Assembly (NCBI GenBank): GCA_963920705.1
Contig: OY987228.1
Span: 14,553,187-14,617,186, forward strand
Source: Odiellus spinosus
Lineage: Eukaryota > Arthropoda > Arachnida > Opiliones > Phalangiidae
Length of the DNA: 64,000 nucleotides
Direction: 5' to 3'
Below the pieces are notes generated by a model. The model searched no databases and was not told where the DNA came from. It saw only the letters and a program-made list of their open reading frames with translations. Of the stretch, positions 6,128 to 54,877 are shown in pieces. The position numbers were made by a program, and so were the translations under genes. Numbering within the stretch: position 1 is the stretch's first letter; each line of letters starts with the position of its first letter.

Positions 6128-11840
<5,713 letters not shown>

Positions 11841-26500: not shown

Positions 26501-27014
26501 TAACACCCTATAGTTTTCCATGCTGCGGCAAAGCGTACCCTTGCGATTTCTGCCACGATGAGAAGGAAACGGATCACGAAATGAAAAGGGCTAACAGAAT
26601 GATTTGCGGATATTGCGCCAAGGAACAAGTAATTGTTCATAAAATTGAAGTTTAATAGGTTCATTTTCTAAAGTTTCGTTTCTTTTTTTAGCCGTATACA
26701 AACGGTAAAGATTGCATATCTTGTTTTAACAGCGTGACGAAAAGAACTGGAACTCATTGGGAAGGGGGCAAAGGGTGTCGAGACAAAATAAAAATGAGCA
26801 GGTAAAAAACTAAAAATCATTTTAGTTATTTATTATAGCGTTTTCCATTTACCAATTTAAAGATCAATCTGAAGCTTTTGAGAGCTTTTTTTTAGTAAAA
26901 GTTGTTTTACGTAACTATTATAACGGTTCATCTTTTTTCTTCTTTAGAGAGGATAAACAAAAATATCAAGGTGTTACCAAGACTATGTCGAAAAAGGCTC
27001 AGTTAAGCAAATAA
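23557..27014 (+). CDS. CCCH / RWD-like / CHY zinc-finger protein, copy 1
   Basis: I do not recognise a named orthologue. Exons: 23557-24659, 24984-25086, 25159-25218, 25297-25352, 25426-26116, 26188-26429, 26514-26628, 26692-26801 and 26948-27014; all phases fit, giving 848 residues. A Ser/Lys-rich N-terminus leads to three CCCH fingers (C-x8-C-x5-C-x3-H) near residues 147, 206 and 264, e.g. CTNYVRYGYCRFGAKCRYEH. Next is an RWD-like region (about 368-480) with the YP step of DDYPKEICLVQC and HINKTIKEWL. A Cys-rich ribbon (CGRCRF, CSRCHHNQ, CLNC, CLYC) follows, then a CHY finger with CKHYKKSF, FPCCGKAYPCDFCHDEKETDH and CGYCAKEQ. CCCH fingers usually bind RNA and RWD/CHY parts suggest ubiquitin-related contacts, but function here is inference. 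An AATAAA (27010-27015) overlaps the stop codon. A diverged tandem paralogue follows at 28666. Confidence 0.85.
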
Positions 27015-34600: not shown

Positions 34601-37600
34601 AAATAAATTTGAAGTTAATTTCTGCCCTTCTGATCCGGTACAGCTATTTTGAAAGCTGCCCTACATTATCTTTTAAATTTCAAATAAATATATTTTATTT
34701 TCTTTCTTCAGTTTTCTCCTGGGCAAGATAGGGATATTGATCTGATTATTGAAATCCCAGATGATTATCCCAAAGAAGTAAGATTATATTATTACCTCGA
34801 GCAAGAGTATATGAAAACTATCCTTAAGAGTGTGCAATCGAGGCCAGAGGGAAGAAAAAATTCAGGGAAATTAAAATTCTTCTTCTAATGAGTTGGGAGA
34901 AATGGTCAGTGAATCTCAATCAGAACATTTTGAACGAACCCTAATCTAATCACTTTATTCCATTAAAGTAAACAACGCCCCCTAGCTTAATACTATCAGC
35001 AAAGGTCCAGGTAAATGTACCGACAGATTCTGATTCGAGGCACTCTAGCGGCCGCAGTTGGTGTAAATAGTGAAATCGGAAGCGCCAATCTTTGAAGCAA
35101 TTCTGGAGATGTAAGGGAAGACAATATAACCAAGCGCGGCCCGCCAAAATTCCGTCCCTCTCTCCCGACTCAAAATATCGAGGAAGAGTCCAAATCACTC
35201 CAGCCAGGCAGGGGTGATGACTTTTTTGTCTAGTTTTAAGTGATGGGCTAGTACGTTTACCTGGCCTTTGCTGATAGTATTAGGGAATAAAGTGATAGAC
35301 TTATGATAAAAGCAAGAGTGAAAAGCTATAAATAGGTGGGGTATGCAACGCCGAATTAACTCTTCCAATAGGCCTTATTATAAAATAATCTTGGAAACGA
35401 ATAAAAGAGCCGTTAAAAAGCACCCGTTTGTTTTGAAGATGGTCCCTTTTTTCAAGGCTGGTACAAAGTGTAGGATTTTCTATACTTTTTCCAACCTTGA
35501 AACTAACAAAAAGAGCCGTTAAATAGAACCCGTTTATACGGAAGATGGTACATTTTTTTCAAGGTTGAAACGTAGTCAGAATTTATGTTATCGTCTATTT
35601 ACTTTTTAAACTCTTAACAAAATTTTTGATAAGAAATTCCGTTTGTCTCGTAGGTATGTTTTATCCAGTGCTTGAACAAAGATGATGTTCATTCCGTTCT
35701 ACTTACACGGTAAAATCACTAGTTTAAAAAATATCTTTACTTTAAAAATTGAAGTTTACGTATTAAATTCATTTAGAAAATTCTTACAGATATATCAACA
35801 AAAAAATGAAAGAATGGCTCTGTTCAAAATATGAAGCTTCGAAGGAATTGGAGAAAGTGGAGCCGCTTTTACAACCTTTCTTCAATTGGTTAGATAATAG
35901 TTTGAATCGTCTATATTATGAAGGATTGGAAAAGGTTGATGAAGACTTTGAACTAGAAGCGTTTGGCATTCAATTTGGTTTCGAAGACATTGTTAAACAC
36001 GAAAAACCCAAGCCAGTTAAAAGTAGTGGAACTGAAATCAAACTTCCTAATTTGGAGCTGACTGATCACGCCGGTACTCTGAGCTGTCACAAGCTGGATT
36101 TTACAGTACAGTGTGTTCGCTGCCGTTTTAGGTCCGACATCATAACGCCACCGCGTCGTGTCAACCAGATTATTTGCTCCCGATGCCGTCATAATCAACG
36201 AGCCACTTTCCGACCCCAACATCTTCAACAATTTTTGCCTGTTTTAGGCTATTTGGACCTGGAAGGATGTTTGTTGATTGATATTTCGCTCTCAAAATGC
36301 AGCTTCGTAGTCGAATGTTCGAACTGTAACCGACGAGAAGATATGGAGGTATATCTAAATTACACATGAGTTCGTGCGTCTTTCTTTACGCTAAAAATGC
36401 ACATGCGAAGCTAGAGGCGCTTTGATAATCTTCGTTGCAAACTCCGGTTGATTTTGAGTTTTTATTTCAAAACCCGCGCCAAGTTCGAATTTTTTTGTGA
36501 GGATCAGCGTATTACTTCGAGGCATATCGCTTAAGCCTAACGCAAGGTCTAGGCCTAGTTTAATTATTATACGTGTTGGAGATTAGAGATTATATATATA
36601 TTTTTTTGCTATTATTAATAAAGAAAGAACTCTAATGTAAGAGAAATTTCAATAATTTTGTCTTTACAAAACAGGCTCTGCAGTTTGGAGAAAAACGAAT
36701 TATCTGGTGCTTTTATTGCGACAGCAAAATGGGTGTTCGAGTGGAATCGGTGAAATTTCAATACCAGCAACCAACTGTCACTACTGGCTCCACGCCGTTT
36801 GTAAAACTCGGGAAAACTGCTAAAAAAGTTCATCCTGTCGTACAAGAAGGGAACCCTTTACCCGAAAATGGAACTTGCAAGCATTGGAAGAAAAGTTTCA
36901 TTTGGCTTCGGTGATTCCGAATTATATCATCTCAGCTTTATCATCCGCGTCACTAATGGACCCAAATCAATTAACACCCTATAGTTTTCCATGCTGCGGC
37001 AAAGCGTACCCTTGCGATTTCTGCCACAATGAGAAGGAAACGGATCACGAGATGAAAAGGGCTAACAGAATGATTTGCGGATATTGCGCCAATGAACAAG
37101 TAATTATTCATGAAATTGGAGTTTAATAGGTTTCTAAAGTTTGGTTTCCCCATTTTAGCCATATACAAATGGTAAAGATTGCGTATCTTGTTTGAGAAGC
37201 GTAACAAAAGGAACCGGAACTCATTGGGAAGGCGGGAAAGGGTGTCGAAACGAAATACAAATTAACAGGTAAATATCATTTTATTTTACAAAAGCCGCGT
37301 TCACAAAAGAGACAAGTTTTTGTAACTGGTTTTAACAGTTTTAGAAAAGTAATATAGTGAAATTGAGTCAGTTGTAGAGATTATTGGTTATAAATTAATA
37401 TTATTTGCTCGAAACTGAACATTCAAAACGATTTTGAAACGGGTTTATTGTCCATACTGTGAATGAAGCTAAGTTGTAACGTAGCTTATGTAAAAGGTGT
37501 TTTACGTAACTATAACGGTTCTTCTTTCTTTAGAGAAGACAAACAAAAATATCACGGTGTAACAAAGACTTTGTCAAAAAAAAAAAAAAAAAAAACCTAA
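28666..37600 (+). CDS. CCCH / RWD-like / CHY zinc-finger protein, copy 2 with a 5.3-kb satellite-filled first intron
   Basis: This is a diverged tandem paralogue of the gene at 23557. Exons: 28666-29252, 34541-34637, 34712-34777, 35654-35709, 35790-36348, 36675-36910, 36985-37099, 37159-37268 and 37534-37600. Exon borders and phases match copy 1 throughout and the frame stays open, giving 630 residues. Only two CCCH fingers remain (CTNYLRYGYCRFGIKCKYEH and CWFFKRTGSC...CEFLH); the third and its linker are missing. The RWD-like part (YPKEVCFIQC), the Cys-rich ribbon and the CHY finger (CKHWKKSF, with Trp for Tyr; CCGKAYPCDFCHNEKETDH) are kept. The start is uncertain: similarity to copy 1 extends upstream of 28666 (EFSE...SSSS) without an in-frame ATG, so an upstream exon or a shifted start is needed. 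The last exon ends in a 20-A run, coding a short Lys tail. Intact frames suggest a working gene. Confidence 0.72.
29294..29420. mobile_element. Short inverted-terminal repeat element, family copy 2
   Basis: It starts GACTATCTGC and ends GCAGATAGGGC, the reverse orientation of the copy at 12601-12750, and shares its ACAATTTG / CTTTAAAG internal blocks. It lies at the start of intron 1 of the copy 2 CCCH gene, just before the 21-bp array. Confidence 0.6.
29548..34434. repeat. 21-bp tandem array in an intron, about 232 copies
   Basis: The unit is TCAACGACCCATTGGTCTGG plus C. The first TCAACGACCC starts at 29548 and the last at 34420, a distance of exactly 232 x 21 bp, so the array has no net indel. 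By eye only the first unit (GAGCTGG instead of GGTCTGG) and the last two full units (GGTTC instead of GGCTC) differ. The unit has no stop codon in three of its six frames, so open frames of about 1,640 codons arise on both strands (for example repeating LAQRPIG on +), but these have no codon or domain support. The whole array sits in intron 1 of the copy 2 CCCH/RWD/CHY gene; the equivalent intron of copy 1 is 324 bp. Confidence 0.97.
34949..35296. mobile_element. MITE with asymmetric inverted arms in intron 3 of copy 2
   Basis: ATCACTTTATTCC at 34949 is inverted at 35284-35296. Further in, TAATACTATCAGCAAAGG is inverted as CCTTTGCTGATAGTATTA. The left arm has an extra 26 bp or so (with AACAACGCCCCCTAGC) between the two blocks that the right arm lacks. 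No coding sequence. Confidence 0.7.
35393..35590. repeat. Direct duplication, two units about 106 bp apart
   Basis: AGAGCCGTTAAA begins at 35406 and again at 35512, each followed by CCCGTTT, a GAAGATGGT block and TTTTTTCAAGG. The two units are clearly related but diverged. They lie in the same intron of the copy 2 gene as the MITE at 34949. Confidence 0.6.
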
Positions 37601-37693
37601 TTATGCCAATAAAATATGAAAATTGTTAAATTTTTAATTCTTTCAATTATAGTAAAATATTATGATTTTGGATAACGTAAATGTAAAGTTTTA

Positions 37694-37736
37694 GGGAAGC
37701 TGCAAAGGGTGGTAAGACAAAATAAAATAAGCTGGT
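37694..37736 (+). pseudogene. Fragment resembling CCCH/RWD/CHY exon 8
   Basis: Just after the 3' UTR of copy 2 there is a stretch (GGGAAGCTGCAAAGGGTG, then AAGACAAAATAAAATAAGC and GGT) that matches the end of exon 8 in copy 1 (26760-26803) and copy 2 (37228-37270), including the position of the splice donor, with several small changes. It suggests a third, truncated gene copy or a template switch next to the satellite complex. Confidence 0.5.
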
Positions 37737-37832
37737 GAAAATCTCAGTTTTCGGAAAAGCAGTTTTTTCCGGAAGAGCAATTTTTTTTCCAGAAGAGCAC
37801 TTTATTTTCCAGAAAATAATTGATTTTTTTTT

Positions 37833-38390
37833 CCAAATCTCAATTTTCCAAATCTCAATTTTCCAAATCTCAATTTTCCAAATCCCAATTCTCCAAATCC
37901 CAATTTTCGTAATCCCAATTTTCGTAATCCCAATTTTCGTAATCCCAATTTTCGTAATCCCAATTTTCGTAATCCCAATTTTCCAAATCCCAATTTTCCG
38001 AATCCCAATTTTCCGAATCCCAATTTTCCGAATCCCAATTTTCCGAATCCCAATTTTCCGAATCCCAATTTTCCGAATCCCAATTTTCCGAATCCCAATT
38101 TTCCGAATCCCAATTTTCCGAATCCCAATTTTCCGAATCCCAATTTTCCGAATCCCAATTTTCCGAATCCCAATTTTCCGAATCCCAATTTTCCGAATCC
38201 CAATTTTCCGAATCCCAATTTTCCGAATCCCAATTTTCCGAATCCCAATTTTCCGAATCCCAATTTTCCGAATCCCAATTTTCCGAATCCCAATTTCCCG
38301 AATCCCAATTTCCCGAATCCCAATTTCCCGAATCCCAAGTTTCCCGAATCCCAAGTTTCCCGAATCCCAATTTTCCAAATCTCAAAAATC
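37833..38390. repeat. 15-bp tandem array, left flank of the inverted satellite complex
   Basis: About 37 copies of TTTTCCGAATCCCAA. Variants are in local blocks: the first few carry CCAAATCTC, then five CGTAATCCC, then more than twenty CGAATCCC, and the last ones CCCGAATCCC. The final units again read CCAAATCTCAA and run into the junction with the 17-bp array. Related units in reverse orientation flank the other side of the complex at 48,640-48,800. Confidence 0.93.
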
Positions 38391-38395
38391 TCTCA

Positions 38396-41300
38396 AATTT
38401 CCAAGGGGTGTATTTTTACAGGGGGTGTATTTTTACGTGGGTGTATTTTAACAGGGGGTGTATTTTTACAAGGGGTGTATTTTTACAGGGGGTGTATTTT
38501 TACAAGGGGTGTATTTTTACAGGGGGTGTATTTTTCCAGGGGGTGTTTTTTCCAGGGGGTGTATTTTTCCAGTAGGTGTATTTTTCCAGGGGGTGTATTT
38601 TTCCAGGGGGTGTATTTTTCCAGGGGGTGTATTTTTCCAGGGGGTGTATTTTTCCAGGGGGTGTATTTTTCCAGGGGGTGTATTTTTCCAGGGGGTGTAT
38701 TTTTCCAGGGGGTGTATTTTTCCAGGGGGTGTATTTTTCCAGGGGGTGTATTTTTCCAGGGGGTGTATTTTTCCAGGGGGTGTATTTTTCCAGGGGGTGT
38801 ATTTTTCCAGGGGGTGTATTTTTACTGGGGGGTGTATTTTTACTGGGGGGTGTATTTTTACTGGGGGGTGTATTTTTACTGGGGGTGTATTTTTACTGGG
38901 GGTGTATTTTTACTGGGGGTGTATTTTTACTGGGGGTGTATTTTTACAGGGGGTGTATTTTTACAGTGGGTGTATTTTTACAGGGGTGTATTTTTACAGG
39001 GGGTGTATTTTTACAGGGGGTGTATTTTTACTAGGGGTGTATTTTTACTGGGGGTGTATTTTTACTGGGGGTGTATTTTTACTGGGGGTGTATTTTTACA
39101 GCTGGTGTATTTTTACAGGGGGTGTATTTTTACAGGGGGTGTATTTTTACAGGGGGTGTATTTTTATAGGGGGTGTATTTTTACAGGGGGTGTATTTTTA
39201 CAGGGGGTGTATTTTTACAAGGGGTGTATTTTTCCAGGGGGTGTATTTTTCCAGGGGGTGTATTTTTACTGGGGGTGTATTTTTACTGGGGGTGTATTTT
39301 TACAAGGGGTGTATTTTTACAGGGGGTGTATTTTTACAGGGGGTGTATTTTTACTGGGGGTGTATTTTTACTGGGGGTGTATTTTTACTGGGGGTGTATT
39401 TTTACAGGGGGTGTATTTTTACAGGGGGTGTATTTTTACAGGGGGTGTATTTTTACAGGGGGTGTATTTTTCCAGGGGGTGTATTTTTCCAGGGGGTGTA
39501 TTTTTCCAGGGGGTGTATTTTTCCAGGGGGTGTATTTTTACTGGGGGTGTATTTTTACTGGGGGTGTATTTTTACTGGGGTGTATTTTTACTGGGGGTGT
39601 ATTTTTACTGGGGGTGTATTTTTACTGGGGGTGTATTTTTACTGGGGGTGAATTTTTACATGGGGGTGAATTTTTACAGGGGGTGTATTTTTACAGGGGG
39701 TGTATTTTTACTGGGGGTGTATTTTTACTGGGGGTGTATTTTTATTGGGGGTGTATTTTTACAGGGGGTGTATTTTTACAGGGGGTGTATTTTTACAGGG
39801 GGTGTATTTTTACAGGGGGTGTATTTTTACAGGGGTGTTTTTTTACAGGGGGTGTATTTTTACAGGGGGTGTATTTTTACAGGGGGTGTATTTTTCCAGG
39901 GGGTGTATTTTTCCAGGGGGTGTATTTTTCCAGGGGGTGTATTTTTCCAGGGGGTGTATTTTTCCAGGGGGTGTATTTTTCCAGGGGGTGTATTTTTCCA
40001 GGGGGTGTATTTTTCCAGGGGGTGTATTTTTCCAGGGGGTGTATTTTTCCAGGCGGTGTATTTTTCCAGGGGGTGTATTTTTATAGGGGGTGTATTTTTA
40101 CAGGGGGTGTATTTTTACAAGGGGTGTATTTTTCCAGGGGGTGTATTTTTCCAGGGGGTGTATTTTTACTGGGGGTGTATTTTTACTGGGGGTGTATTTT
40201 TACTGGGGGTGTATTTTTACTGGGGGTGTATTTTTACAGGGGTGTATTTTTACAGGGTGTGTATTTTTACAGCTGGTGTATTTTTACTGGGGTGTATTTT
40301 TACTAGGGGTGTATTTTTACTGGGGGTGTATTTTTACAGGGGGGTATTTTTACTGGGGGTGTATTTTTACAGGGGGTGTATTTTTACAGGGGGTGTATTT
40401 TTACAGGGGGTGAATTTTTACAGGGGGTGTATTTTTACAGGGGGTGTATTTTTACAGGGGGTGTATTTTTACAGGGGTGTATTATACAGGGGGTGTATTT
40501 TAACAGGGGGTGTATTTTTACAGGGGGTGTATTTTTACAGGGGGTGTATTTTTACAGGGGGTGTATTTTTACTAGGGGTGTATTTTTACTGGGGGTGTAT
40601 TTTTACTGGGGGTGTATTTTTTCAGGGGGGTATTTTACTGGGGGTGTATTTTTACAGGGGGTGTATTTTTACAGGGGTTGAATTTTTAGAGGGGGTGTAT
40701 TTTTACAGGGGGTGTATTTTTACAGGGGGTGTATTATACAGGGGGTGTATTTTTACAGGGGGTGTATTTTTACAGGGGGTGTATTTTTACAGGGGGTGTA
40801 TTTTTACAAGGGGTGTATTTTTACAAGGGGTGTATTTTTACAAGGGGTGTATTTTTACAGGGGGTGTATTTTTACTGTAGGTGTATTTTTACTGGGGGTG
40901 TATTTTTACTGGGGGTGTATTTTTACAGGGGGTGTATTTTTACTGGGGGTGTATTTTTACAGGGGATGTATTTTTACAGGGGGTGTATTTTTACAGGGGG
41001 TGTATTTTTACAGGGGGTGTATTTTTACAGGGGGTGTATTTTTCCAGGGGGTGTATTTTTCCAGGGGGTGTATTTTTCCAGGGGGTGTATTTTTCCAGGG
41101 GGTGTATTTTTCCAGGGGGTGTATTTTTACAGGGGGTGTATTTTTACAAGGGGGTGTATTTTTACAGGGGGTGTATTTTTACAAGGGGTGTATTTTTACA
41201 AGGGATGTATTTTTACAGGGGTGTTTTTTACTGGGGGTGTATTTTTACTGGGGGTGTATTTTTACTGGGGGTGTATTTTTACAGGGGGTGCATTTTTACA

Positions 41301-44300
41301 AGGGGTGTATTTTTACAGGGGGTGTATTTTTACAGGGGGTGTATTTTTACAGAGGGTGTATTTTTACAAGGGGTGTATTTTTACACGGGGTGTTTTTTAC
41401 AGGGGGTGTATTTTTACTGGGGGTGTATTTTTACTGGGGGTGTATTTTTACAGGGGGTGTATTTTTACTGGGGGTATATTTTTACAGGGGGTGTATTTTT
41501 ACTGGGGGTGTATTTTTACTGGGGGTGTATTTTTACTGGGGGTGTATTTTTACAGGGGGTGTATTATTTCAGGGGGTGTATTTTTACTGGGGGGTGTATT
41601 TTTACTGGGGGTGTATTTTTACTGGGGGTGTATTTTTATTGGGGGTGTATTTTTATTGGGGGTGTATTTTTATTGGGGGTGTATTTTTACAGGGAGTGTA
41701 TTTTTACAGGGGTGTATTTTTACATAGGGTGTATTTTTACAGGGGGTGTATTTTTACTAGGGGTGTATTTTTACAAGGGATGTATTTTTACTGGGGGTGT
41801 ATTTTTACTGGGGGTGTATTTTTACAGATGGTGTATTTTTACAGATGGTGTATTTTTACAGGGGGTTTATTTTTACATGGGGTGTATTTTTACAGGGGGT
41901 GTATTTTTCCAGGGGGTGTATTTTTCCAGGGGGTGTATTTTTCCAGGGGGTGTATTTTTACAGGGGGTGTATTTTTCCAGGGGGTGTATTTTTCCAGGGG
42001 GTGTATTTTTCCAAGGGGTGTATTTTTCCAGGGGGTGTATTTTTCCAGGGGGTGTATTTTTCCAGGGGGTGTATTTTTCCAGGGGGTGTATTTTTACTGG
42101 GGGGTGTATTTTTACTGGGGGTGTATTTTTACTGTTGGTGTATTTTTACTGTTGGTGTATTTTTACTGGGGGTGTATTTTTATTGGGGGGTGTATTTTTA
42201 CAGGGGGTGTATTTTTACTGGGGGTGTATTTTTACAGGGGGTGTATTTTTACTGGGGGTGTATTTTTACAGGGGATGTATTTTTACAGGGGGTGTATTTT
42301 TACAGGGGGTGTATTTTTACAGGGGGTGTATTTTTACAGGGGGTGTATTTTTACAGGGGGTGTATTTTTACAGGGGGTGTATTTTTACAGGGGGTGAATT
42401 TTTCCAGGGGGTGAATTTTTCCAGGGGGTGTATTTTTCCAGGGGGTGTATTTTTCCAGGGGGTGTATTTTTACAGGGGGTGTATTTTTACAGGGGGTGTA
42501 TTTTTACAGGGGGTGTATTTTTACAAGGGGTGTATTTTTACAAGGGATGTATTTTTACAGGGGGTGTTTTTTACTGGGGGTGTATTTTTACTGGGGGTGT
42601 ATTTTTACTGGGGGTGTATTTTTACAGGGGGTGTATTTTTACAGCTGGTGTATTTTTACAGGGGGTGTATTTTTACAGGGGGTGTATTTTTACAGGGGAT
42701 GTATTTTTACAAGGGGTGTATTTTTACAGGGGGTGTATTTTTACTGGGGGTGTATTTTTACTGGGGGTGTATTTTTACTGGGGGTGTATTTTTACTGGGG
42801 GTGTATTTTTACAGGGGGTGTATTTTTACTGGGGGGTGTATTTTTACTGGGGGTGTATTTTTACTGGGGGTGTATTTTTACTGGGGGTGTATTTTTACAG
42901 GGGGTGTATTTTTACAGGGGGTGTATTTTTACAGGGGTGTATTTTTACAGGGGGTGTATTTTTACAGGGGGTGTATTTTTACTAGGGGTGTATTTTTACT
43001 GGGGGTGTATTTTTACTGGGGGTGTATTTTTTCAGGGGGGTATTTTACTGGGGGTGTATTTTTACAGGGGGTGTATTTTTACAGGGGTTGAATTTTTAGA
43101 GGGGGTGTATTTTTACAGGGGGTGTATTTTTACAGGGGGTGTATTTTTACAGGGGGTGTATTTTTACAGGGGGTGTATTTTTACAGGGGGTGTATTTTTA
43201 CAAGGGGTGTATTTTTACAAGGGGTGTATTTTTACAGGGGGTGTATTTTTACTGTAGGTGTATTTTTACTGGGGGTGTATTTTTACTGGGGGTGTATTTT
43301 TACAGGGGGTGTATTTTTACTGGGGGTGTATTTTTACAGGGGATGTATTTTTACAGGGGGTGTATTTTTACAGGGGGTGTATTTTTACAGGGGGTGTATT
43401 TTTACAGGGGGTGTATTTTTACAGGGGGTGTATTTTTCCAGGGGGTGTATTTTTCCAGGGGGTGTATTTTTCCAGGGGGTGTATTTTTCCAGGGGGTGTA
43501 TTTTTACAGGGGGTGTATTTTTACAAGGGGGTGTATTTTTACAGGGGGTGTATTTTTACAAGGGGTGTATTTTTACAAGGGATGTATTTTTACAGGGGTG
43601 TTTTTTACTGGGGGTGTATTTTTACTGGGGGTGTATTTTTACTGGGGGTGTATTTTTACAGGGGGTGTATTTTTACAGCTGGTGTATTTTTACAGGGGGT
43701 GTATTTTTACAGGGGGTGTATTTTTACAGGGGGTGTATTTTTACAGGGGGTGTATTTTTACAAGGGGTGTATTTTTACAGGGGGTGTATTTTTACAGGGG
43801 GTGTATTTTTACTGGGGGTGTATTTTTACTGGGGGTGTATTTTTACTGGGGGTGTATTTTTACTGGGGGTGTATTTTTACAGGGGGTGTATTTTTACAGG
43901 GGTGTATTTTTACAGGGGGTGTATTTTTACAGCGGGTGTATTTTTACTGGGGGTGTATTTTTACTAGGGGTGTATTTTTACTGGGGGTGTATTTTTACAG
44001 GGGGTATTTTTACAGGGGGTGTGTTTTTACAGGGGGTGAATTTTTACAGGGGGTGTATTTTTACAGGGGGTGTATTTTTACAGGGGGTGTATTATACAGG
44101 GGGTGTATTATACAGGGGGTGTATTTTTACAGGGGTGTATTTTTGCAGGGGGTGTATTTTTACCGAGTGGTGTATTTTTACAAGGGGTGTATTTTTACAC
44201 GGGCTGTTTTTTACACCGGGTGTATTTTTACTGGGGGTGTATTTTTACTGGAGGTGTATTTTTACAGGGGGTGTATTTTTACAGGGGGTGTATTTTTACT

Positions 44301-44408
44301 GGGGGTGTATTTTTACTGGGGGTGTATTTTTACTGGGGGTGTATTTTTACTGGGGGTGTATTTTTACAGGGGGTGTATTTTTACAGGGGTGTATTTTTAC
44401 AGGGGTGT
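38396..44408. repeat. 17-bp tandem array, left arm (G/T-rich on +)
   Basis: About 350 copies of GGTGTATTTTTACAGGG. Frequent variants are TCCAGGG, TACTGGG, TACAAGG and rare 14-16 or 18-bp units. Variants come in runs, and longer blocks are repeated: a distinctive stretch (TTCAGGGGGGTATTTTACTG with a following GTTGAATTTTTAGAGG) at about 40,621-40,700 recurs at 43,031-43,110, 2,410 bp away, and its neighbours repeat with it. Because 17 is not a multiple of three and the + unit lacks stops, all plus frames are long and open with a 17-residue period; this is a by-product of composition. Each unit has a run of four to six G. Confidence 0.95.
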
Positions 44409-47400
44409 ATGCACCCCCGGTAAAAATACACCCCCGGTAAAAATACACCCCCGGTAAAAATACACCCCCGGTAAAAATACACCCCCGGTAAAAATACACC
44501 CCCGGTAAAAATACACCCCCGGTAAAAATACACCCCCTGTAAAAATACACCCCCTGTAAAAATACACCCCCTGTAAAAATACACCCCCTGTAAAAATACA
44601 CCCCCTGTAAAAATGCACCCCCTGTAAAAATGCACCCCCTGTAAAAATACACCCCCCAGTAAAAATACACCCCCCAGTAAAAATGCACCCCCAGTAAAAA
44701 TGCACCCCCAGTAAAAATACACCCCCCAGTAAAAATGCACCCCCTGTAAAAATGCACCCCCTGTAAAAATGCACCCCCTGTAAAAATGCACCCCCTGTAA
44801 AAATGCACCCCCTGTAAAAATGCACCCCCTGTAAAAATGCACCCCCCGTAAAATGCACCCCCCGTAAAAATACACCCCCGTAAAAATACACCCCCTGTAA
44901 AAATACACCCCCTGTAAAAAAACACCCCCTGTAAAAAAACACCCCCTGTAAAAATACACCCCTGTAAAAATACACCCCCTGTAAAAATACACCCCCTGTA
45001 AAAATACACCCCCTGTAAAAATACACCCCCAGTAAAAATACACTCCCAGTAAAAATACACCCCCAGTAAAAATACACCCCCAGTAAAAATACACCCCCTG
45101 TAAAAATACACCCCCTGTAAAAATACACCCCCTGTAAAAATACACCCCCTGTAAAAATACACCCCCTGTAAAAATACACCCCCTGTAAAAATACACCCCC
45201 TGTAAAAATACACCCCCTGTAAAAAAACACCCCCTGTAAAAATACACCCCCTGTAAAAATACACCCCCAGTAAAAATACACCCCCAGTAAAATTACACCC
45301 CCAGTAAAAATACACCCCCTGTAAAAATACACCCCCAGTAAAAATACACCCCCTGTAAAAATACACCTCCTGTAAAAATACACCCCCAGTTAAAATACAC
45401 CCCCAGTAAAAATACACCCCCAGTAAAAATACACCCCCTGTAAAAATACACCCCCTGTAAAAATACACCCCCTGTAAAAATGCACCCCCTGTAAAAATGC
45501 ACCCCCCGTAAAATGCACCCCCCGTAAAAATACACCCCCGTAAAAATACACCCCCTGTAAAAATACACCCCCCTGTAAAAAAACACCCCCTGTAAAAAAA
45601 CACCCCCTGTAAAAATACACCCCTGTAAAAATACACCCCCTGTAAAAATACACCCCCTGTAAAAATACACCCCCTGTAAAAATACACCCCCAGTAAAAAT
45701 ACACTCCCAGTAAAATTACACCCCCAGTAAAAATACACCCCCAGTAAAAATACACCCCCTGTAAAAATACACCCCCTGTAAAAATACACCCCCTGTAAAA
45801 ATACACCCCCTGTAAAAATACACCCCCTGTAAAAATACACCCCCTGTAAAAATACACCCCCTGTAAAAATACACCCCCTGTAAAAAAACACCCCCTGTAA
45901 AAATACACCCCCTGTAAAAATACACCCCCAGTAAAAATACACCCCCAGTAAAATTACACCCCCAGTAAAAATACACCCCCTGTAAAAATACACCCCCTGT
46001 AAAAATACACCCCCAGTAAAAATACACCCCCTGTAAAAATACACCTCCTGTAAAAATACACCCCCAGTTAAAATACACCCCCAGTAAAAATACACCCCCA
46101 GTAAAAATACACCCCCTGTAAAAATACACCCCCTGTAAAAATACACCCCCTGTAAAAATACACCCCCTGTAAAAATACACCCCTGTAAAAATACACCCCT
46201 GTAAAAATACACCCCCTGTAAAAATACACCCCTGTAAAAATACACCCCCAGTAAAAATACACCCCCAGTAAAAATACACCCCCAGTAAAAATACACCCCC
46301 TGTAAAAATGCACCCCCAGTAAAAATACACCCCCCAGTAAAAATGCACCCCCTGTAAAAATGCACCCCCTGTAAAAATGCACCCCCTGTAAAAATGCACC
46401 CCCTGTAAAAATGCACCCCCTGTAAAAATGCACCCCCTGTAAAAATGCACCCCCCGTAAAATGCACCCCCCGTAAAAATACACCCCCGTAAAAATACACC
46501 CCCTGTAAAAATACACCCCCTGTAAAAAAACACCCCCTGTAAAAAAACACCCCCTGTAAAAATACACCCCTGTAAAAATACACCCCCTGTAAAAATACAC
46601 CCCCTGTAAAAATACACCCCCTGTAAAAATACACCCCCAGTAAAAATACACTCCCAGTAAAAATACACCCCCAGTAAAAATACACCCCCAGTAAAAATAC
46701 ACCCCCTGTAAAAATACACCCCCTGTAAAAATACACCCCCTGTAAAAATACACCCCCTGTAAAAATACACCCCCTGTAAAAATACACCCCCTGTAAAAAT
46801 ACACCCCCTGTAAAAATACACCCCCTGTAAAAATACACCCCCTGTAAAAAAACACCCCCTGTAAAAATACACCCCCTGTAAAAATACACCCCCAGTAAAA
46901 ATACACCCCCAGTAAAATTACACCCCCAGTAAAAATACACCCCCTGTAAAAATACACCCCCAGTAAAAATACACCCCCTGTAAAAATACACCTCCTGTAA
47001 AAATACACCCCCAGTTAAAATACACCCCCAGTAAAAATACACCCCCAGTAAAAATACACCCCCTGTAAAAATACACCCCCTGTAAAAATACACCCCCTGT
47101 AAAAATGCACCCCCTGTAAAAATGCACCCCCCGTAAAATGCACCCCCCGTAAAAATACACCCCCGTAAAAATACACCCCCTGTAAAAATACACCCCCCTG
47201 TAAAAAAACACCCCCTGTAAAAAAACACCCCCTGTAAAAATACACCCCTGTAAAAATACACCCCCTGTAAAAATACACCCCCTGTAAAAATACACCCCCT
47301 GTAAAAATACACCCCCAGTAAAAATACACTCCCAGTAAAATTACACCCCCAGTAAAAATACACCCCCAGTAAAAATACACCCCCTGTAAAAATACACCCC

Positions 47401-48620
47401 CTGTAAAAATACACCCCCTGTAAAAATACACCCCCTGTAAAAATACACCCCCTGTAAAAATACACCCCCTGTAAAAATACACCCCCTGTAAAAATACACC
47501 CCCTGTAAAAATACACCCCCTGTAAAAATACACCCCCTGTAAAAAAACACCCCCTGTAAAAATACACCCCCTGTAAAAATACACCCCCAGTAAAAATACA
47601 CCCCCAGTAAAATTACACCCCCAGTAAAAATACACCCCCTGTAAAAATACACCCCCTGTAAAAATACACCCCCAGTAAAAATACACCCCCTGTAAAAATA
47701 CACCTCCTGTAAAAATACACCCCCAGTTAAAATACACCCCCAGTAAAAATACACCCCCAGTAAAAATACACCCCCTGTAAAAATACACCCCCTGTAAAAA
47801 TACACCCCCTGTAAAAATACACCCCCTGTAAAAATACACCCCTGTAAAAATACACCCCTGTAAAAATACACCCCCTGTAAAAATACACCCCTGTAAAAAT
47901 ACACCCCCAGTAAAAATACACCCCCAGTAAAAATACACCCCCAGTAAAAATACACCCCCTGTAAAAATACACCCCCATTAAAAATACACCCCCAGTAAAA
48001 ATACACCACCTGTAAAAATACACCCCCTGTAAAAATACACCCCCTGTAAAAATACACCCCCTGTAAAAATACACCCCCAGTAAAAATACACCCCTTGGAA
48101 AAATACACCCCTTGGAAAAATACACCCCCTCTAAAAATACACCCCTTGGAAAAATACACCCCTTGGAAAAATACACCCCCTGGAAAAATACACCCCCCGG
48201 AAAAATACACCCCCTGGAAAAATACACCCCCAGGAAAAATACACCCCCCGGAAAATTACACCCCCCGAAAAATACACCCCCCGGAAAAATACACCCCCCG
48301 GAAAAATACACCCCCTGGAAAAATACACCCCCTGGAAAAATACACCCCCTGGGAAAGTACACCCCCTGGAAAAATACACCCCCTGGAAAAATACACCCCC
48401 TGGAAAAATACACCCCCTGGAAAAATACACCCCCTGGAAAAATACACCCCCAGGAAAAATACACCCCCAGTAAAAATACACCCCCTGTAAAAATACACCC
48501 CCTGTAAAAAAACACCTCCTGTAAAAATATATCCCTTGTGAAAAACACCCCCTGTAAAAATACACACCCTGTAAAAATACACCCCCTGTTAAAATACACC
48601 CCTGTAAAAATACACCCCCT
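44409..48620. repeat. 17-bp tandem array, right arm (inverted, C/A-rich on +)
   Basis: About 245 copies of CCCTGTAAAAATACACC, the reverse complement of the left-arm unit. Variants include CCCAGT, CCCCGGT (first seven or so units), ATGCACC blocks and, at the far end, CTTGGAAAAATACACC. Higher-order repetition is clear: the rare block CACCTCCTGTAAAAATACAC recurs at about 45,364, 46,043, 46,989 and 47,701, and GTAAAATGCACCCCCCG at about 44,850, 45,510, 46,456 and 47,134. Pairs of these are about 1.6 kb apart, indicating a large block duplication. Confidence 0.95.
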
Positions 48621-48625
48621 TGGAA

Positions 48626-49895
48626 ATTTGAGAGATTTTTGAGATTTGGAAAATTGAGATTTGGAAAATTGAAATTTTTTGAGATTTGGAAAATTGAAAT
48701 TTTAGAGATTTGGAAAATTGAGATTTGGAAAATTGAGATTTGGAAAATTGAGATTTGGAAAATTGAGATTTGGAAAATTGAGATTTGGAAAATTGAGATT
48801 TTTGAGATTTGGAAAATTAAGATTTTTGAGATTGGGAAAATTGAGATTTTTGAGATTGGGAAAAATTGAGATTTTTGAGATTGGGAAAAAATGGAGATTT
48901 TTGAGATTGGGAAAATTGTGATTTTTGAGATTGGGAAAATTGAGATTTTTGAGATTTTTGAGATTTGGAAAGTTGAGATTTTTGAGATTTGGAAAATTGA
49001 GATTTTTGAGATTTGGAAAATTGAGATTTTTGAGATTTGGAAAATTGAGATTTTTGAGATTTGGAAAATTGAGATTTTTGAGATTTGGAAAATTGAGATT
49101 TTTGAGATTTGGAAAATTGAGATTTTTGAGATTTGGAAAGTTGAGATTTTTGAGATTTGGAAAATTGAGATTTTTGAGATTTGGAAAATTGAGATTTTTG
49201 AGATTGGGAAAATTGTGATTTTTGAGATTTGGAAAGTTGAGATTTTTGAGATTTGGAAAATTGAGATTTTTGAGATTTGGAAAATTGAGATTTTTGAGAT
49301 TTGGAAAATTGAGATTTTTGAGATTTGGAAAATTGAGATTTTTGAGATTTGGAAAATTGAGATTTTTGAGATTTGGAAAATTGAGATTTTTGAGATTTGG
49401 AAAATTGAGATTTTTGAGATTTGGAAAGTTGAGATTTTTGATATTTGGAAAATTGAGATTTTTGATATTTGGAAAATTGAGATTTTTGAGATTTGGAAAA
49501 TTGAGATTTTTGAGATTTGGAAAATTGAGATTTTTGAGATTTGGAAAATTGAGATTTTTGAGATTTGGAAAATTGAGATTTTTGAGATTTGGAAAATTGA
49601 GATTTTTGAGATTTGGAAAATTGAGATTTTTAAGATTTGGAAAATTGAGATTTTTGAGATTTGGAAAATTGAGATTTTTGAGATTTGGAAAATTGAGATT
49701 TTTGAGGTTTGGAAAATTGAGATTTTTGAGATTTTTGAGATTTGGAAAATTGAGATTTTTGAGGTTTGGAAAATTGAGATTTTTGAGATTTTGAGATTGG
49801 GAAAATTGAGATTTTTGAGATTTGGAAAATTGAGATTTTTGAGATTCTGAAAATTGAGATTTTTGAGATTTGGAAAATTGAGATTTTTGGAGAAT
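48626..49895. repeat. 15-bp then 24-bp tandem array, right flank of the inverted complex
   Basis: It begins with a few 15-bp units (GAGATTTGGAAAATT at 48,716-48,800), the reverse-complement type of the left-flank 15-mer. It then becomes a 24-bp unit made of GAGATTTTT plus the 15-mer, repeated about 40 times from 48,930. A few units read GGGAAAATT, GTGATTTTT or GATATTTGG. The 24-mer is therefore the 15-mer with a 9-bp addition, which then spread. Confidence 0.93.
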
Positions 49896-49920
49896 TGGAA
49901 AAAAAAAAAAAATAATTGTT

Positions 49921-50395
49921 TTTTTTACAAGGGGTACCCCTTTGGAAAAATTTCGATCATTTTTTGTAAAATTTTTGATTATTTATTTTACTGGGGGTGT
50001 ATTTATTTTTTTTTTTACATGGGGTACCCCTTGTAAAATTTTGGATTATTTATTTTACAGGGGTGTATTTATTTTTTTTTTACAAGGGGTACCCCTTGTA
50101 AAAATTAAATTATTTATTTCGATTTTATTATAAGGGTTACCCCTTGTAAAATTTTGGATTATTTATTTTACAGGGGTGTATTTATTTTTTTTACAAGGGG
50201 TACCCCTTGTAAAAATTAAATTATTTATTTCGATTTTATTATAAGGGTTACCCCTTGTAAAATTTTGGGTTATTTATTTTACAGGGGGTGTATTTATTTA
50301 TTTTTTTTTGCAAGGGATACCCCTTGTAAAATTTTTGGTTACTTATTTTACAGGGGGGGGGGGTATTTTTTTTTTTTTCACTAGGTACCCCTTGG
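49921..50395. repeat. Block of longer units with CAAGGGGTACCCCTTG palindromes
   Basis: The palindrome CAAGGGGTACCCCTTG recurs at 50,082 and 50,193 and in altered forms at 49,928, 50,016 and 50,312. Between 50,082 and 50,311 two units of about 111-119 bp repeat almost exactly (AAATTATTTATTTCGATTTT, then AAGGGTTACCCCTTG, then TATTTATTTTACAGGGGTG). T-runs and GGGGTGTATTTATT link it to the 17-bp satellite. Confidence 0.85.
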
Positions 50396-50399
50396 AAAA

Positions 50400-51079
50400 A
50401 TTTATTTTTTTGAAAATAAAACACCATTTGAAAATAAAAGACCCCTTGAAAATAAAACACCACTTAAAAATAAAACACCCCTAGAAAATAAAACACCCCT
50501 AGAAAATAAAACACCCCTAGAAAATAAAACACCCCTAGAAAATGAAACACCCCTAGAAAATAAAACACCCTTTGAAAATAAAACACCTCTTGAAAATAAA
50601 ACACCTCTTGGAAATAAATTACCCCTCTAAAATAAAACACCCCTTGAAAATAAAACACCCCTTGAAAATAAAACACTTCTTGAAAATAAAACACCCTTTG
50701 AAAATAAAACACCCTTTGAAAATAAAACACCCCGTGAATTTTAACACCCCTTGGATAAAAATCGATAAAAAAAAATTAAGATTTCCAAGGGGTACCGCTT
50801 GAAAATAAAACACCCCTTGAAAATAAAACACCATTTGAAAACAAAAAAACACCCCTTGAAATCAAAACACCCCCTTGAAAATAAAACACCCCTTGAAAAT
50901 AAAACACCCTTTGAAAATAAAACACCCTTTGAAAATAAAACACCCTTTGAAAATAAAACACCCTTTGAAAATAAAACACCCTTTGAAAATAAAACACCCT
51001 TTGATAATAAAACACCTCTTGAAAATAAAACACCTCTTGAAAATAAAACACCTCTTGAAAATAAAACACCCCTTTAAAA
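50400..51079. repeat. 18-bp array, GAAAATAAAACACCCCTT type
   Basis: About 35 units of GAAAATAAAACACCCCTT with block-wise variants (CCTAGAAAAT, CCTTTGAAAAT, CTCTTGAAAAT). It is interrupted at 50,732-50,800 by a non-repeat spacer with GTGAATTTTAACACCCCTTG and ATAAAAATCGATAAAA, which recurs at 53,042-53,100. Confidence 0.9.
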
Positions 51080-51229
51080 TAAAACATCCTCGAAAATAAA
51101 ACATCCTCGAAAATAAAACATCCTCGAAAATAAAACATCCTCGAAAATAAAACATCCTCGAAAATAAAACATCCTCGAAAATAAAACATCCTCGAAAATA
51201 AAACATCCTCGAAAATAAAACATCCTCGA
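51080..51229. repeat. 17-bp array, CATCCTCGAAAATAAAA type
   Basis: About nine perfect units of CATCCTCGAAAATAAAA. It differs from the preceding 18-bp units by one deleted base and a CTCG core, and passes directly into the next 18-bp array. It is a short intermediate between the two. Confidence 0.9.
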
Positions 51230-53030
51230 AAATAAATTACTTCTCGAAAATAAATTACTCCTCGAAAATAAATTACTCCTCGAAAATAAATTACTCCTCG
51301 AAAATAAATTACTCCTCGAAAATAAATTACTCCTCGAAAATAAATTACTCCTCGAAAATAAATTACTCCTCGAAAATAAATTACTCCTCGAAAATAAATT
51401 ACTCCTCGAAAATAAATTACTCCTCGAAAATAAATTACTCCTCGAAAATAAATTACTCCTCGAAAATAAATTACTCCTCGAAAATAAATTACTCCTCGAA
51501 AATAAATTACTCCTCGAAAATAAATTACTCCTCGAAAATAAATTACTCCTCGAAAATAAATTACTCCTCGAAAATAAATTACTCCTCGAAAATAAATTAC
51601 TCCTCGAAAATAAATTACTCCTCGAAAATAAATTACTCCTCGAAAATAAATTACTCCTCGAAAATAAATTACTCCTCGAAAATAAATTACTCCTCGAAAA
51701 TAAATTACTCCTCGAAAATAAATTACTCCTCGAAAATAAATTACTCCTCGAAAATAAATTACTCCTCGAAAATAAATTACTCCTCGAAAATAAATTACTC
51801 CTCGAAAATAAATTACTCCTCGAAAATAAATTACTCCTCGAAAATAAATTACTCCTCGAAAATAAATTACTCCTCGAAAATAAATTACTCCTCGAAAATA
51901 AATTACTCCTCGAAAATAAATTACTCCTCGAAAATAAATTACTCCTCGAAAATAAATTACTCCTCGAAAATAAATTACTCCTCGAAAATAAATTACTCCT
52001 CGAAAATAAATTACTCCTCGAAAATAAATTACTCCTCGAAAATAAATTACTCCTCGAAAATAAATTACTCCTCGAAAATAAATTACTCCTCGAAAATAAA
52101 TTACTCCTCGAAAATAAATTACTCCTCGAAAATAAATTACTCCTCGAAAATAAATTACTCCTCGAAAATAAATTACTCCTCGAAAATAAATTACTCCTCG
52201 AAAATAAATTACTCCTCGAAAATAAATTACTCCTCGAAAATAAATTACTCCTCGAAAATAAATTACTCCTCGAAAATAAATTACTCCTCGAAAATAAATT
52301 ACTCCTCGAAAATAAATTACTCCTCGAAAATAAATTACTCCTCGAAAATAAATTACTCCTCGAAAATAAATTACTCCTCGAAAATAAATTACTCCTCGAA
52401 AATAAATTACTCCTCGAAAATAAATTACTCCTCGAAAATAAATTACTCCTCGAAAATAAATTACTCCTCGAAAATAAATTACTCCTCGAAAATAAATTAC
52501 TCCTCGAAAATAAATTACTCCTCGAAAATAAATTACTCCTCGAAAATAAATTACTCCTCGAAAATAAATTACTCCTCGAAAATAAATTACTCCTCGAAAA
52601 TAAATTACTCCTCGAAAATAAATTACTCCTCGAAAATAAATTACTCCTCGAAAATAAATTACTCCTCGAAAATAAATTACTCCTCGAAAATAAATTACTC
52701 CTCGAAAATAAATTACTCCTCGAAAATAAATTACTCCTCGAAAATAAATTACTCCTCGAAAATAAATTACTCCTCGAAAATAAATTACTCCTCGAAAATA
52801 AATTACTCCTCGAAAATAAATTACTCCTCGAAAATAAATTACTCCTCGAAAATAAATTACTCCTCGAAAATAAATTACTCCTCGAAAATAAATTACTCCT
52901 CGAAAATAAATTACTCCTCGAAAATAAATTACTCCTCGAAAATAAATTACTCCTCGAAAATAAATTACTCCTCGAAAATAAATTACTCCTCGAAAATAAA
53001 TTACTCCTCGAAAATAAATTACTCCTTGAA
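51230..53030. repeat. 18-bp array, CTCGAAAATAAATTACTC type, about 100 copies
   Basis: The unit CTCGAAAATAAATTACTC repeats about 100 times with almost no variation; only the first unit (TTCTC) and the last (CTTGAAAAT) differ by eye. The six-residue open frames it creates on the minus strand have no other support. Confidence 0.96.
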
Positions 53031-53089
53031 AATAAAACACCTCGTGAATTTATAACACCCCTTGGATAAAAATCGAAAAAAAAAAAAAA

Positions 53090-54056
53090 GATTTCCTTGA
53101 AATGAAGACACGCTTTTAAAAATAAGACACGCTTGGAAAATAAGACGCGCTTGGAAAATAAGACGCGCTTGGAAAATAAGACGCGCTTGGAAAATAAGAC
53201 GCGCTTGGAAAATAAGACGCGCTTGGAAAATAAGACGCGCTTGGAAAATAAGACGCGCTTGGAAAATAAGACGCGCTTGGAAAATAAGACGCGCTTGGAA
53301 AATAAGACGCGCTTGGAAAATAAGACGCGCTTGGAAAATAAGACGCGCTTGGAAAATAAGACGCGCTTGGAAAATAAGACGCGCTTGGAAAATAAGACGC
53401 GCTTGGAAAATAAGACGCGCTTGGAAAATAAGACGCGCTTGGAAAATAAGACGCGATTGGAAAATAAGACGCGCTTGGAAAATAAGACGCGCTTGGAAAA
53501 TAAGACGCGCTTGGAAAATAAGACGCGCTTGGAAAATAAGACGCGCTTGGAAAATAAGACGCGCTTGGAAAATAAGACGCGCTTGGAAAATAAGACGCGC
53601 TTGGAAAATAAAACGCGCTTGGAAAATAAAACGCGCTTGGAAAATAAAACGCGCTTGGAAAATAAAACGCGCTTGGAAAATAAAACGCGCTTGGAAAATA
53701 AAACGCGCTTGGAAAATAAAACGCGCTTGGAAAATAAAACGCGCTTGGAAAATAAAACACGCTTGGAAAATAAAACACGCTTGGAAAATAAAACACGCTT
53801 GGAAAATAAAACACGCTTGGAAAATAAAACACGCTTGGAAAATAAAACACGCTTGGAAAATAAAACACCCTTGGAAAATAAAACACCCTTGGAAAATAAA
53901 ACACGCTTGGAAAATTAAACACGCTTGGAAAATAAAACACGCTTGGAAAATAAAACACGCTTCGAAAATAAAACACGCTTCGAAAATAAAACACGCATCG
54001 AAAATAAAACACGCTTCGAAAATAAAACACGCTTTGAAAATAAAACACGTTTTGAA
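53090..54056. repeat. 18-bp array, GCTTGGAAAATAAGACGC type with a variant gradient
   Basis: About 53 units of GCTTGGAAAATAAGACGC. From left to right the unit changes stepwise: AAGACGC (about 28 units), AAAACGC (about 8), AAAACAC (about 6), two AAAACACCC units, and finally CTTCGAAAAT units. Isolated single-base variants (CGATTGG near 53,453; AAATTAAAC near 53,913) occur once each. The array ends at unique sequence near 54,057. Confidence 0.94.
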
Positions 54057-54877
54057 AAGCTTTAGTACCATTCGACCGACGGGGTTTTTGGTGTGTCCCA
54101 TTCGACCGAACGTCGCGTAAAAGTGCGACTAATCAGAAACACCTCGAAAATCCTATCTAAAAACCATGATCTTATCAAATCTCAAAATGAACACGCACTC
54201 TCCCTATTAAGATGATGCAGTAGCTATGAATTTAGCAATGTCTACTTAATATCTCTCTAGAGTTTTCTATAATGTATGTATTTATATTGAAAATAAAATG
54301 GAAATTGCATTATTTGCACTTTTAGCTTCACCTACTCAAGCAAAGAAAATGTAACTGAAGCTAAAAATGATATAGTTAATCCATTTAACCCAACCTAACT
54401 CAACCTATCCTAACCCAACCTAGCCATACGCGACTACTTGATTTTCGTCACTTCCAACGACGGCGGCGGCGACGACATCGAACCATAAAATGCAATACCT
54501 ACACTCCTCCTAATCAGAGGGGTGTAGGTAAAAAAGTAAAAGACTCGAGAAATCTAAAAATGCTTGGCCGAAACTCTTACCTTCTACTCCTCTCCTTTCT
54601 ACCCTCTGTGGTATGACTGACTACTGATTGCTCCTGATCCGGCCTTGTTGAGTCGGGATTCGAGCTCAGCATACTGTACAATGTGCAAAAACTACTTGGT
54701 TACGCACCGAAAGTGACCCGTTACAGAAAAAACTTTGTTGTTAACCTTTGGCACAGTCCAATTATCCACGGCTGCGCGTACCCGGCCTAATGACGCTGTA
54801 ATTTATTTCGATAAATCATTGTATGATCCTAAAAAGTTGGAGCATAATACAGCATATTAGCTCTCTTGTTTATAATA
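54057..54877. other. Spacer between the satellite complex and AIP
   Basis: It starts with two CCATTCGACCGA copies (54,069 and 54,098). At 54,388-54,426 there is a degenerate run of CCTAACC / CCCAACC steps on +, reminiscent of TTAGG telomere-like motifs but too irregular to be telomeric. No gene is seen; the AIP promoter should lie near its right end. Confidence 0.45.

What the first reader, a model, noticed from the sequence alone, without database searches (positions are those of the whole stretch)
37833..49895. Giant (~12 kb) inverted satellite: two arms of related minisatellites mirrored about 44,409
The order on the left is 15-bp array, junction, 17-bp array. From the centre the right side gives 17-bp array in reverse complement, the same junction, then a reverse-complement 15/24-bp array. 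Arms are about 6.6 and 5.5 kb. Simple tandem arrays usually keep one direction. A mirrored multi-array structure suggests one array block was copied head-to-head and both arms then evolved separately. It could form a very large hairpin or cruciform and be fragile.
Basis: seen in the sequence. Interest (0 to 1): 0.82.

Follow-up and report, generated by a model that had tools for sequence, protein, structure and literature searches.

The report
Mirrored minisatellite block, foldback-like
A 12-kb block in which two kinds of short tandem repeat run outward in mirror image from one point is real and belongs to a family of such mirrored repeat blocks scattered through this genome; it is best explained as the overgrown arms of a foldback-type mobile element.

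Summary
In detail: 37829-49905 reads 15-bp array, junction, 17-bp array, centre at 44410, then the same layers inverted, ending in a 24-bp relative of the 15-bp array. Right-hand layers continue to 54048. It is not unique. The non-repetitive junction occurs 18 more times in the 443-Mb genome, at 7 further loci; 3 of those 7 also hold it as an inverted pair in the same head-to-head sense. Places matching a head-to-head centre number 198, tail-to-tail 48. At C5:16.13 Mb the same core lies inside about five further mirrored layers with an inverted repeat F of about 170 bp; F also bounds a 6.5-kb foldback element with minisatellite-bearing inverted arms (C1:14.11 Mb). The window's arms share few unit variants and no mirrored unit order, so each grew separately and an assembly mirror is unlikely. 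Best explanation: a macro-dyad satellite seeded by a foldback-type element. No target-site duplication, conserved ends or transposase was shown for it, so membership is not claimed. Closest known: Tetris, Galileo, Rehavkus, and the macro-dyad satellites of Tribolium. New here: multi-layered, polarity-coherent arms, dispersed in short blocks.

The parts
37748..37828 (+). left outermost piece: 20-bp degenerate repeat and a cassette-like AATAATTGATTTTTTTT remnant
   Evidence: TRF rows 37748-37814; the cassette motif AATAATTGATTTTTTTTAC is also in L009 and L044, and inverted in L052
37829..38385 (+). layer E, left: 15-bp array TTTTCCGAATCCCAA / TTTTCCAAATCTCAA
38383..38408 (+). junction J, left copy (CAAAAATCTCTCAAATTTCCAAGGGG)
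   Evidence: exact match
38405..44410 (+). layer A, left arm: 17-bp array GGGGTGTATTTTTACAG, 354.5 copies, main higher-order offset 2377 bp
44402..44417 (.). centre GGGGTGTATGCACCCC: stem GGGGTG/CACCCC with a 4-nt loop
44412..48620 (-). layer A, right arm: inverted 17-bp array, 248.5 copies, main higher-order offset 1625 bp
48616..48641 (-). junction J, right copy, inverted and exact
48623..49902 (-). layer E, right: 24-bp arrays (TTTTCCAAATCTCAAAAATCTCAA in left sense)
49915..50403 (-). layer C: GGGGTACCCC palindromic cassettes, right side only
   Evidence: same motif beside E at C14:3.1 Mb and C5:16.13 Mb
50410..54048 (-). layer D: 18/36-bp array TTGAAAATAAAACACCCC, in the polarity that D has on the right side of mirrored loci L017, L019, L021, L028; no left partner here

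Best explanation
The block is a kilobase-scale mirrored (macro-dyad) satellite. It belongs to a dispersed family whose seed was a foldback-type mobile element with short tandem repeats in its long inverted arms. Inferred course: a seed carrying E-J-A in both arms, head to head, was inserted at several places. At each place the arms then expanded by unequal exchange or slippage, largely independently, so that family order and polarity stayed mirrored while unit order, copy number and even period (15 against 24 bp) drifted apart. At this locus the element's termini are lost or were never present, and the left side lost or never had the outer layers. Shown: the mirror, the conserved junction in inverted pairs, occurrence at loci with unrelated flanks, coherent polarity in the loci read, arms without shared unit order, and F repeats around the same core at one other locus. 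Inferred: transposition as the means of dispersal, and expansion by unequal exchange.
For: J occurs at 20 places in 8 loci with 0 reversed-pattern controls; 4 of 8 loci hold an inverted pair, each + then -. Head-to-head centres match at 198 places (control 0), tail-to-tail at 48 (control 3); these count places, tandem copies included, and many of the 48 are, by eye, a short cassette hairpin or unrelated sequence, as is at least one listed head-to-head place. In 35 fetched sources, blocks of 5 or more units switch + to - 20 times (A/B type), 4 times (D) and once (E), and - to + 3 times, all 3 in the tandem-hairpin locus L030. Many sources were fetched because they have a head-to-head centre, so that count is biased; the 12 junction-fetched loci included in it (of 20) show no tail-to-tail turn. 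Eleven flanks of 8 loci (6 of the 8 J loci) show no similarity to each other. At C5:16.13 Mb the same E-J-A core is nested in further mirrored layers and F repeats. F's terminus marks 640 places (control 0), is joined to the 16-bp E-type array at 16 places, and bounds a 6.5-kb element at C1:14.11 Mb whose inverted arms (about 1.4 kb, 90.7% identical over 1,067 aligned columns) carry a 50-bp minisatellite. Arms without shared unit order.
Against: The window has no F terminus and no conserved ends: the outer edge of E abuts cassette, 30-bp repeat, 18-bp repeat or unique DNA depending on the locus. No target-site duplication could be shown; an AATAATTG direct repeat at the E edges is also a motif of cassette C. 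F termini are mostly unpaired: among 94 of the 100 listed, neighbours within 40 kb are +- 5, -+ 4, -- 4, ++ 2, and the C2 places whose flanks were read look like duplicated segments. C5:16.13 Mb is the only locus seen with F on both sides of the E-J-A core, and its left F lacks the outermost bases. Five of 8 J loci lie on C5 (15.2-22.8 Mb), which fits local spread as well as transposition. No transposase was linked: none of the 72 MULE-domain hits lies within 650 kb of any of 35 array sites, and no other transposase family was searched. The F arms at C5:16.13 are 85% identical to each other, but the left one is 86-87% identical to copies on C6 and C4, so nothing speaks for a fresh insertion.
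Confidence: 0.58

Rival explanations
1. In-place inverted duplication by fold-back (snap-back) replication. Each 17-bp unit holds TGTA-TTTT-TACA; a nascent 3' end could fold back there and copy its own arm, making a palindrome without transposition. Mirrors would then arise again and again in any array of this family.
For: Centres at four C3 loci (9.34, 23.16, 23.66 and, on the other strand, 21.77 Mb) read GGGGTGTA-TTTT-TACACCCC, what such priming would give. C1:32.71 Mb shows unit-level mirror symmetry at its centre (0 of 126 off-register comparisons as high) and C2:2.38 Mb narrowly (0 of 8, 0.816 against 0.815). The partner arm is the best match for 7 of 12 arms tested.
Against: Ten of 12 loci with a usable comparison, the window among them (69 of 156), show no unit-level mirror at the centre. 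The junction J is identical in both window arms and at other loci, which a copying event inside a 17-bp array does not give unless the copy ran through several kb. The window's arms hold different E periods.
Confidence: 0.24
2. The mirror is kept by selection: the centre acts as a site with a direction, such as a replication start or a chromatin anchor, and arrays of the wrong polarity are lost.
For: Strong strand asymmetry that flips at the centre (GC skew about +0.66 to +0.68 on the left, about -0.68 to -0.70 on the right); several different repeat families point the same way within an arm in the loci read.
Against: Common descent of the arms gives the same polarity without selection. The centre bin is the most divergent of six in 6 of 12 arms, although it is the most uniform in the left arm at C5:16.13 Mb. 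Centre sequences differ between several loci. No functional data exist.
Confidence: 0.07
3. Assembly artefact (false palindrome).
For: Only one assembly was available; no reads could be read.
Against: A chimeric or hairpin read would give near-identical mirrored arms. Here arms share 8-16% of 34-mers, have different E periods, different higher-order offsets and different lengths, and other loci repeat the plan.
Confidence: 0.04

Closest known systems
Tetris, a foldback transposon of Drosophila virilis (PMC4079207; abstract, passages and sections 10 and 19 read)
   Same: [quoted passage not shown] the repeats outgrow the element into satellite-like arrays; outer terminal domain shared with another element (DAIBAM).
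   Different: Tetris units are about 220 bp, TIRs up to 1,735 bp, with 8-10 bp target-site duplications and a middle domain. Here units are mostly 15-32 bp, the window's arms 5.5-6.6 kb, with several layers, almost no loop and no duplication shown.
Macro-dyad satellite arrays of Tribolium madens (PMC13081366; abstract, passages and section 7 part 2 read)
   Same: Kilobase-long inverted subarrays, predominantly two per array, with conserved transition zones between two satellites.
   Different: There the arrays fill multi-megabase, likely (peri)centromeric regions and have highly conserved inversion sites. Here the block is short and lies between gene-bearing stretches, units are 15-32 bp, and the inversion site is shared only by some of the loci read.
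Galileo (PMC3688188; abstract read) and FB of Drosophila (recalled, and as cited in PMC4079207)
   Same: Long internally repetitive terminal inverted repeats; in Galileo the tandem repeats contain transposase binding sites.
   Different: No transposase or binding site is linked to the present arrays.
Rehavkus (passages of PMC6446971 and PMC10218199 read)
   Same: A minisatellite next to or in the inverted termini; F with its adjoining 16-bp array has that layout.
   Different: Rehavkus has 9-bp target-site duplications and a transposase with a PHD finger; neither was shown here.

Membership tests
Foldback DNA transposon | long inverted arms containing tandem repeats | tested here: met
Foldback DNA transposon | dispersed copies at unrelated sites | tested here: met
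   8 J loci; 11 flanks of 8 loci, 6 of them J loci, without mutual similarity
Foldback DNA transposon | conserved terminal sequence at both ends | tested here: not met
   for the window and the other J loci read the outer edges differ; met for C1:14.11 Mb and partly for C5:16.13 Mb, whose left F is truncated, so the window block is not filed as a member
Foldback DNA transposon | target-site duplication of 8-10 bp | tested here: inconclusive
   AATAATTG flanks the E layers but is a cassette motif; C1:14.11 Mb offers only a 3-bp CTG
Foldback DNA transposon | a transposase that mobilises it | tested here: inconclusive
   72 MULE-domain hits in the genome, none within 650 kb of 35 array sites; two frames of L064 without Pfam match; no other transposase family searched
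Macro-dyad satellite (Tribolium type) | kilobase inverted subarrays of one satellite | tested here: met
Macro-dyad satellite (Tribolium type) | conserved transition zone between two satellites | tested here: met
   J exact at 13 of 20 places, 1-3 mismatches at 7
Macro-dyad satellite (Tribolium type) | conserved inversion site | tested here: not met
   one form shared by four C3 loci (one on the other strand), a 2-bp longer form at C1:32.71 Mb; different at the window, C5:16.13, C1:34.07 and C3:16.23 Mb
Macro-dyad satellite (Tribolium type) | megabase (peri)centromeric location | tested here: not met
   a block of about 16 kb with gene-like frames on both sides in the window; the position of centromeres is unknown
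Rehavkus | MULE-like transposase with PHD finger and 9-bp duplications | not tested
   no search for a PHD-finger transposase was made; the blocks read are arrays

The most novel reading that the evidence does not exclude
A class of 'onion' satellites: blocks in which several different minisatellite families are nested as mirrored shells around one point, all pointing the same way within an arm, dispersed by a foldback element and then kept symmetrical by exchange between the two arms of the same locus. They would be the missing step between foldback transposons and macro-dyad centromeric satellites.
Probability: 0.2. Interest if true: 0.7.

Novelty: new variant of a known kind. Interest (0 to 1): 0.47.

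Why it matters
Foldback elements and satellites have been linked in Drosophila virilis, and mirrored satellites described in Tribolium. Here both features meet at many short, scattered loci of one genome. That makes it possible to ask whether mirrored satellites are born from foldback elements or by in-place palindrome formation, and how the arms of a multi-kilobase palindrome survive and diverge.

Tried and rejected
Unit-level mirror at the window's centre: rejected. Growth from the centre outward (youngest units in the middle): not supported, no consistent gradient; the centre bin is the most divergent in 6 of 12 arms, the most uniform in the left arm at C5:16.13 Mb. AATAATTG as target-site duplication: rejected as evidence because it is a cassette motif. 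Empty site from the tandemly duplicated gene block (24970-27093 against 34527-37744): the left flank aligns up to about 37.7 kb but nothing matches the right flank, so no empty site. A link between the arrays and the MULE-bearing element whose terminus abuts the right side at 54058: not supported; of 7 other copies fetched (5 show the full terminus, L057 and L058 a diverged one) none has these arrays beside it, though L062 has an unrelated short tandem repeat there. F pairs on C2 as complete elements: rejected, their flanks look duplicated. Structured-RNA families: none at gathering thresholds in window, L052, L053, L055. Papers: searches; one search found nothing; no listing or passage that I saw describes this repeat family, but only that library was searched and the species is not known to me.

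The host could not be named.

Full report
What is there. The window lies at C4:14553187-14617186 of a 443-Mb genome in 286 contigs with no name. TRF finds a 15-bp array 37829-38385, a 17-bp array 38405-44410, its inverse 44412-48620 and 24-bp arrays between 48623 and 49902. The non-repetitive junction between the outer and inner array is present at 38383-38408 and, inverted and exact, at 48616-48641. GC skew is near +0.66 to +0.68 on the left arm and near -0.68 to -0.70 on the right and flips in the bin that holds 44.4 kb. The centre reads GGGGTGTATGCACCCC, a stem with a 4-nt loop; 340 nt around it fold as one hairpin at -182.6 kcal/mol against a shuffle mean of -58.64 (100 shuffles).

What was missed. 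On the right the layers go on: palindromic GGGGTACCCC cassettes at 49915-50403 and an 18/36-bp array at 50410-54048. The latter has the polarity that this family shows on the right side of mirrored loci L017, L019, L021 and L028. On the left only a short cassette-like remnant stands before the 15-bp array. The block is therefore asymmetric, about 16.3 kb in all.

It is a family. The junction matches at 20 places with up to 3 mismatches (13 exact), in 8 loci, with no match to the reversed pattern. Four loci, the window, C5:16.13, C5:22.8 and C5:15.2 Mb, hold it as inverted pairs, each in the order + then -; the other four show one orientation only, and their far sides were not read. Five of the eight loci lie on C5. 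The head-to-head arrangement GGGGTGTA..TACACCCC matches at 198 places (control 0), the opposite one at 48 (control 3). These are places, not loci: one C2 locus gives eight. Many of the 48, and at least one listed head-to-head place, are by eye a cassette hairpin or unrelated sequence. The exact 17-bp unit occurs 8,932 times on one strand and 14,876 on the other (control 0). In 35 fetched sources, blocks of A/B-type repeats turn from + to - 20 times and from - to + 3 times, all three in L030, a tandem of small hairpins; D turns 4 to 0 and E 1 to 0. Many of these sources were chosen because they contain a head-to-head centre, so the count is biased; the 12 junction-fetched loci included (of 20) show no tail-to-tail turn.

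A larger relative. C5:16122001-16142000 (L052 and L053) has the same E-J-A core inside more mirrored layers: going outward from the centre, 17-bp, junction, 15/16- or 24-bp, 30-bp, cassettes, 24/25-bp, 16-bp, then a unique inverted repeat F of about 170 bp, then 18-bp repeats; the right side carries one block twice, and the left F lacks the outermost bases that other F copies have. The two F copies there are 85% identical; copies on C6 and C4 are 86-87% identical to the left one. The F terminus TTTTAGCTAGACCCAACCC is found at 640 places with up to 1 mismatch (control 0), the F/E boundary at 16 places with up to 3 (control 0). A 6.5-kb stretch between two F termini at C1:14.11 Mb is a foldback element: inverted arms of about 1.4 kb, 90.7% identical over 1,067 aligned columns, with a mirrored 50-bp minisatellite. 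Its longest open stretch has 158 codons; this and a 112-codon one have no Pfam match. Its flanks offer a 3-bp CTG as possible duplication, which chance would give about once in 64. Of 94 F termini listed on C1 and C2, few have neighbours within 40 kb (+- 5, -+ 4, -- 4, ++ 2), and the C2 places whose flanks were read look like duplicated segments. F is therefore often one-ended in what was seen.

How the arms evolved. The window's arms share 8% (left to right) and 16% (right to left) of distinct 34-mers; for 7 of 12 arms in six loci the partner arm is nevertheless the best match. Both window arms have a TATTTTAACAG unit within 100 bases of the junction; none of the other 18 junction copies has it there, though 7 of the 18 have it farther in. 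Rare shared 40-mers show no significant mirrored order in the five loci with enough of them (window rho -0.51, p 0.09; C5:16.13, L025 and L026 near 0; L029 0.60, p 0.21, with some near-centre runs in register); L027 had three runs only. The main higher-order offsets are 2377 bp left and 1625 bp right. Identity in mirrored register at the centre beats every off-register comparison only at C1:32.71 Mb (0 of 126) and, narrowly, C2:2.38 Mb (0 of 8), not at the window (69 of 156) or nine other loci; a thirteenth locus gave no comparison. No consistent gradient of divergence points to growth from the centre. The window's arms behave as two ordinary arrays that started alike and grew apart. This also speaks against a false palindrome in the assembly.

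Reading. Mirrored family order, an identical junction in both arms and at other loci, unrelated flanks (11 flanks of 8 loci), coherent polarity and the F-bounded relatives favour a foldback-type seed that was dispersed and then overgrown by its own minisatellites. The weak points are plain: no conserved ends at the window, no duplication, no transposase (none of 72 MULE-domain hits within 650 kb of 35 array sites), clustering on C5. The main rival, fold-back copying at TGTA-TTTT-TACA, explains the identical centres of four C3 loci and the unit-level mirror at C1:32.71 Mb, and may act on top of dispersal. I give the first 0.58 and the second 0.24.

Known kinds. Tetris of Drosophila virilis is a foldback element whose tandem repeats in the arms became satellite arrays (PMC4079207). 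Tribolium madens has kilobase macro-dyad symmetries of two satellites with conserved transition zones and inversion sites in megabase regions (PMC13081366). Rehavkus elements carry a minisatellite at their termini (PMC6446971; PMC10218199), and Galileo's repetitive arms bind its transposase (PMC3688188 abstract). The present block works like the first and looks like the second, and fulfils the full definition of none. I rate it a new variant of a known kind.

Noticed in passing
54058-54340: The right side of the block abuts the terminus (GCTTTAGTACCATTCGACC) of another repeat; at C275, C107 and C82 matches to this stretch lie on both sides of a MULE-domain hit, so it looks like a deleted copy of a MULE-bearing element.
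   Followed up: partly
29548-34433: A 21-bp array of 232.7 copies, 99% matches, GC-rich (57%), open over its whole length in three frames; diverged relatives on C1, C3, C4, C6 and C14.
   Followed up: no
24970-27093 and 34527-37744: Duplicated stretches, aligned pieces 68-82% alike, each with a frame of a cysteine-rich protein without Pfam match (25538-26128, 35806-36369); two CCCH zinc-finger frames lie nearby at 23542-24663 and 28645-29256.
   Followed up: partly
10762-11136: Minus-strand frame with a sub-threshold THAP domain (23.0 bits, cut-off 23.9); a transposase remnant or host gene.
   Followed up: no
L030 (C3:27050000-27059900): A tandem of about 2-kb units, each itself a head-to-head hairpin, the only source with tail-to-tail turns; an F copy lies 3.4 kb beyond at C3:27063264.
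   Followed up: partly
C3:4465479-4468570: F matches occur five times at a spacing of exactly 741 bp, a tandem array that includes the terminal repeat.
   Followed up: no
C2:30.30-30.63 Mb: F copies with the same flank in direct or inverted orientation, hence probably duplicated segments in this region.
   Followed up: partly
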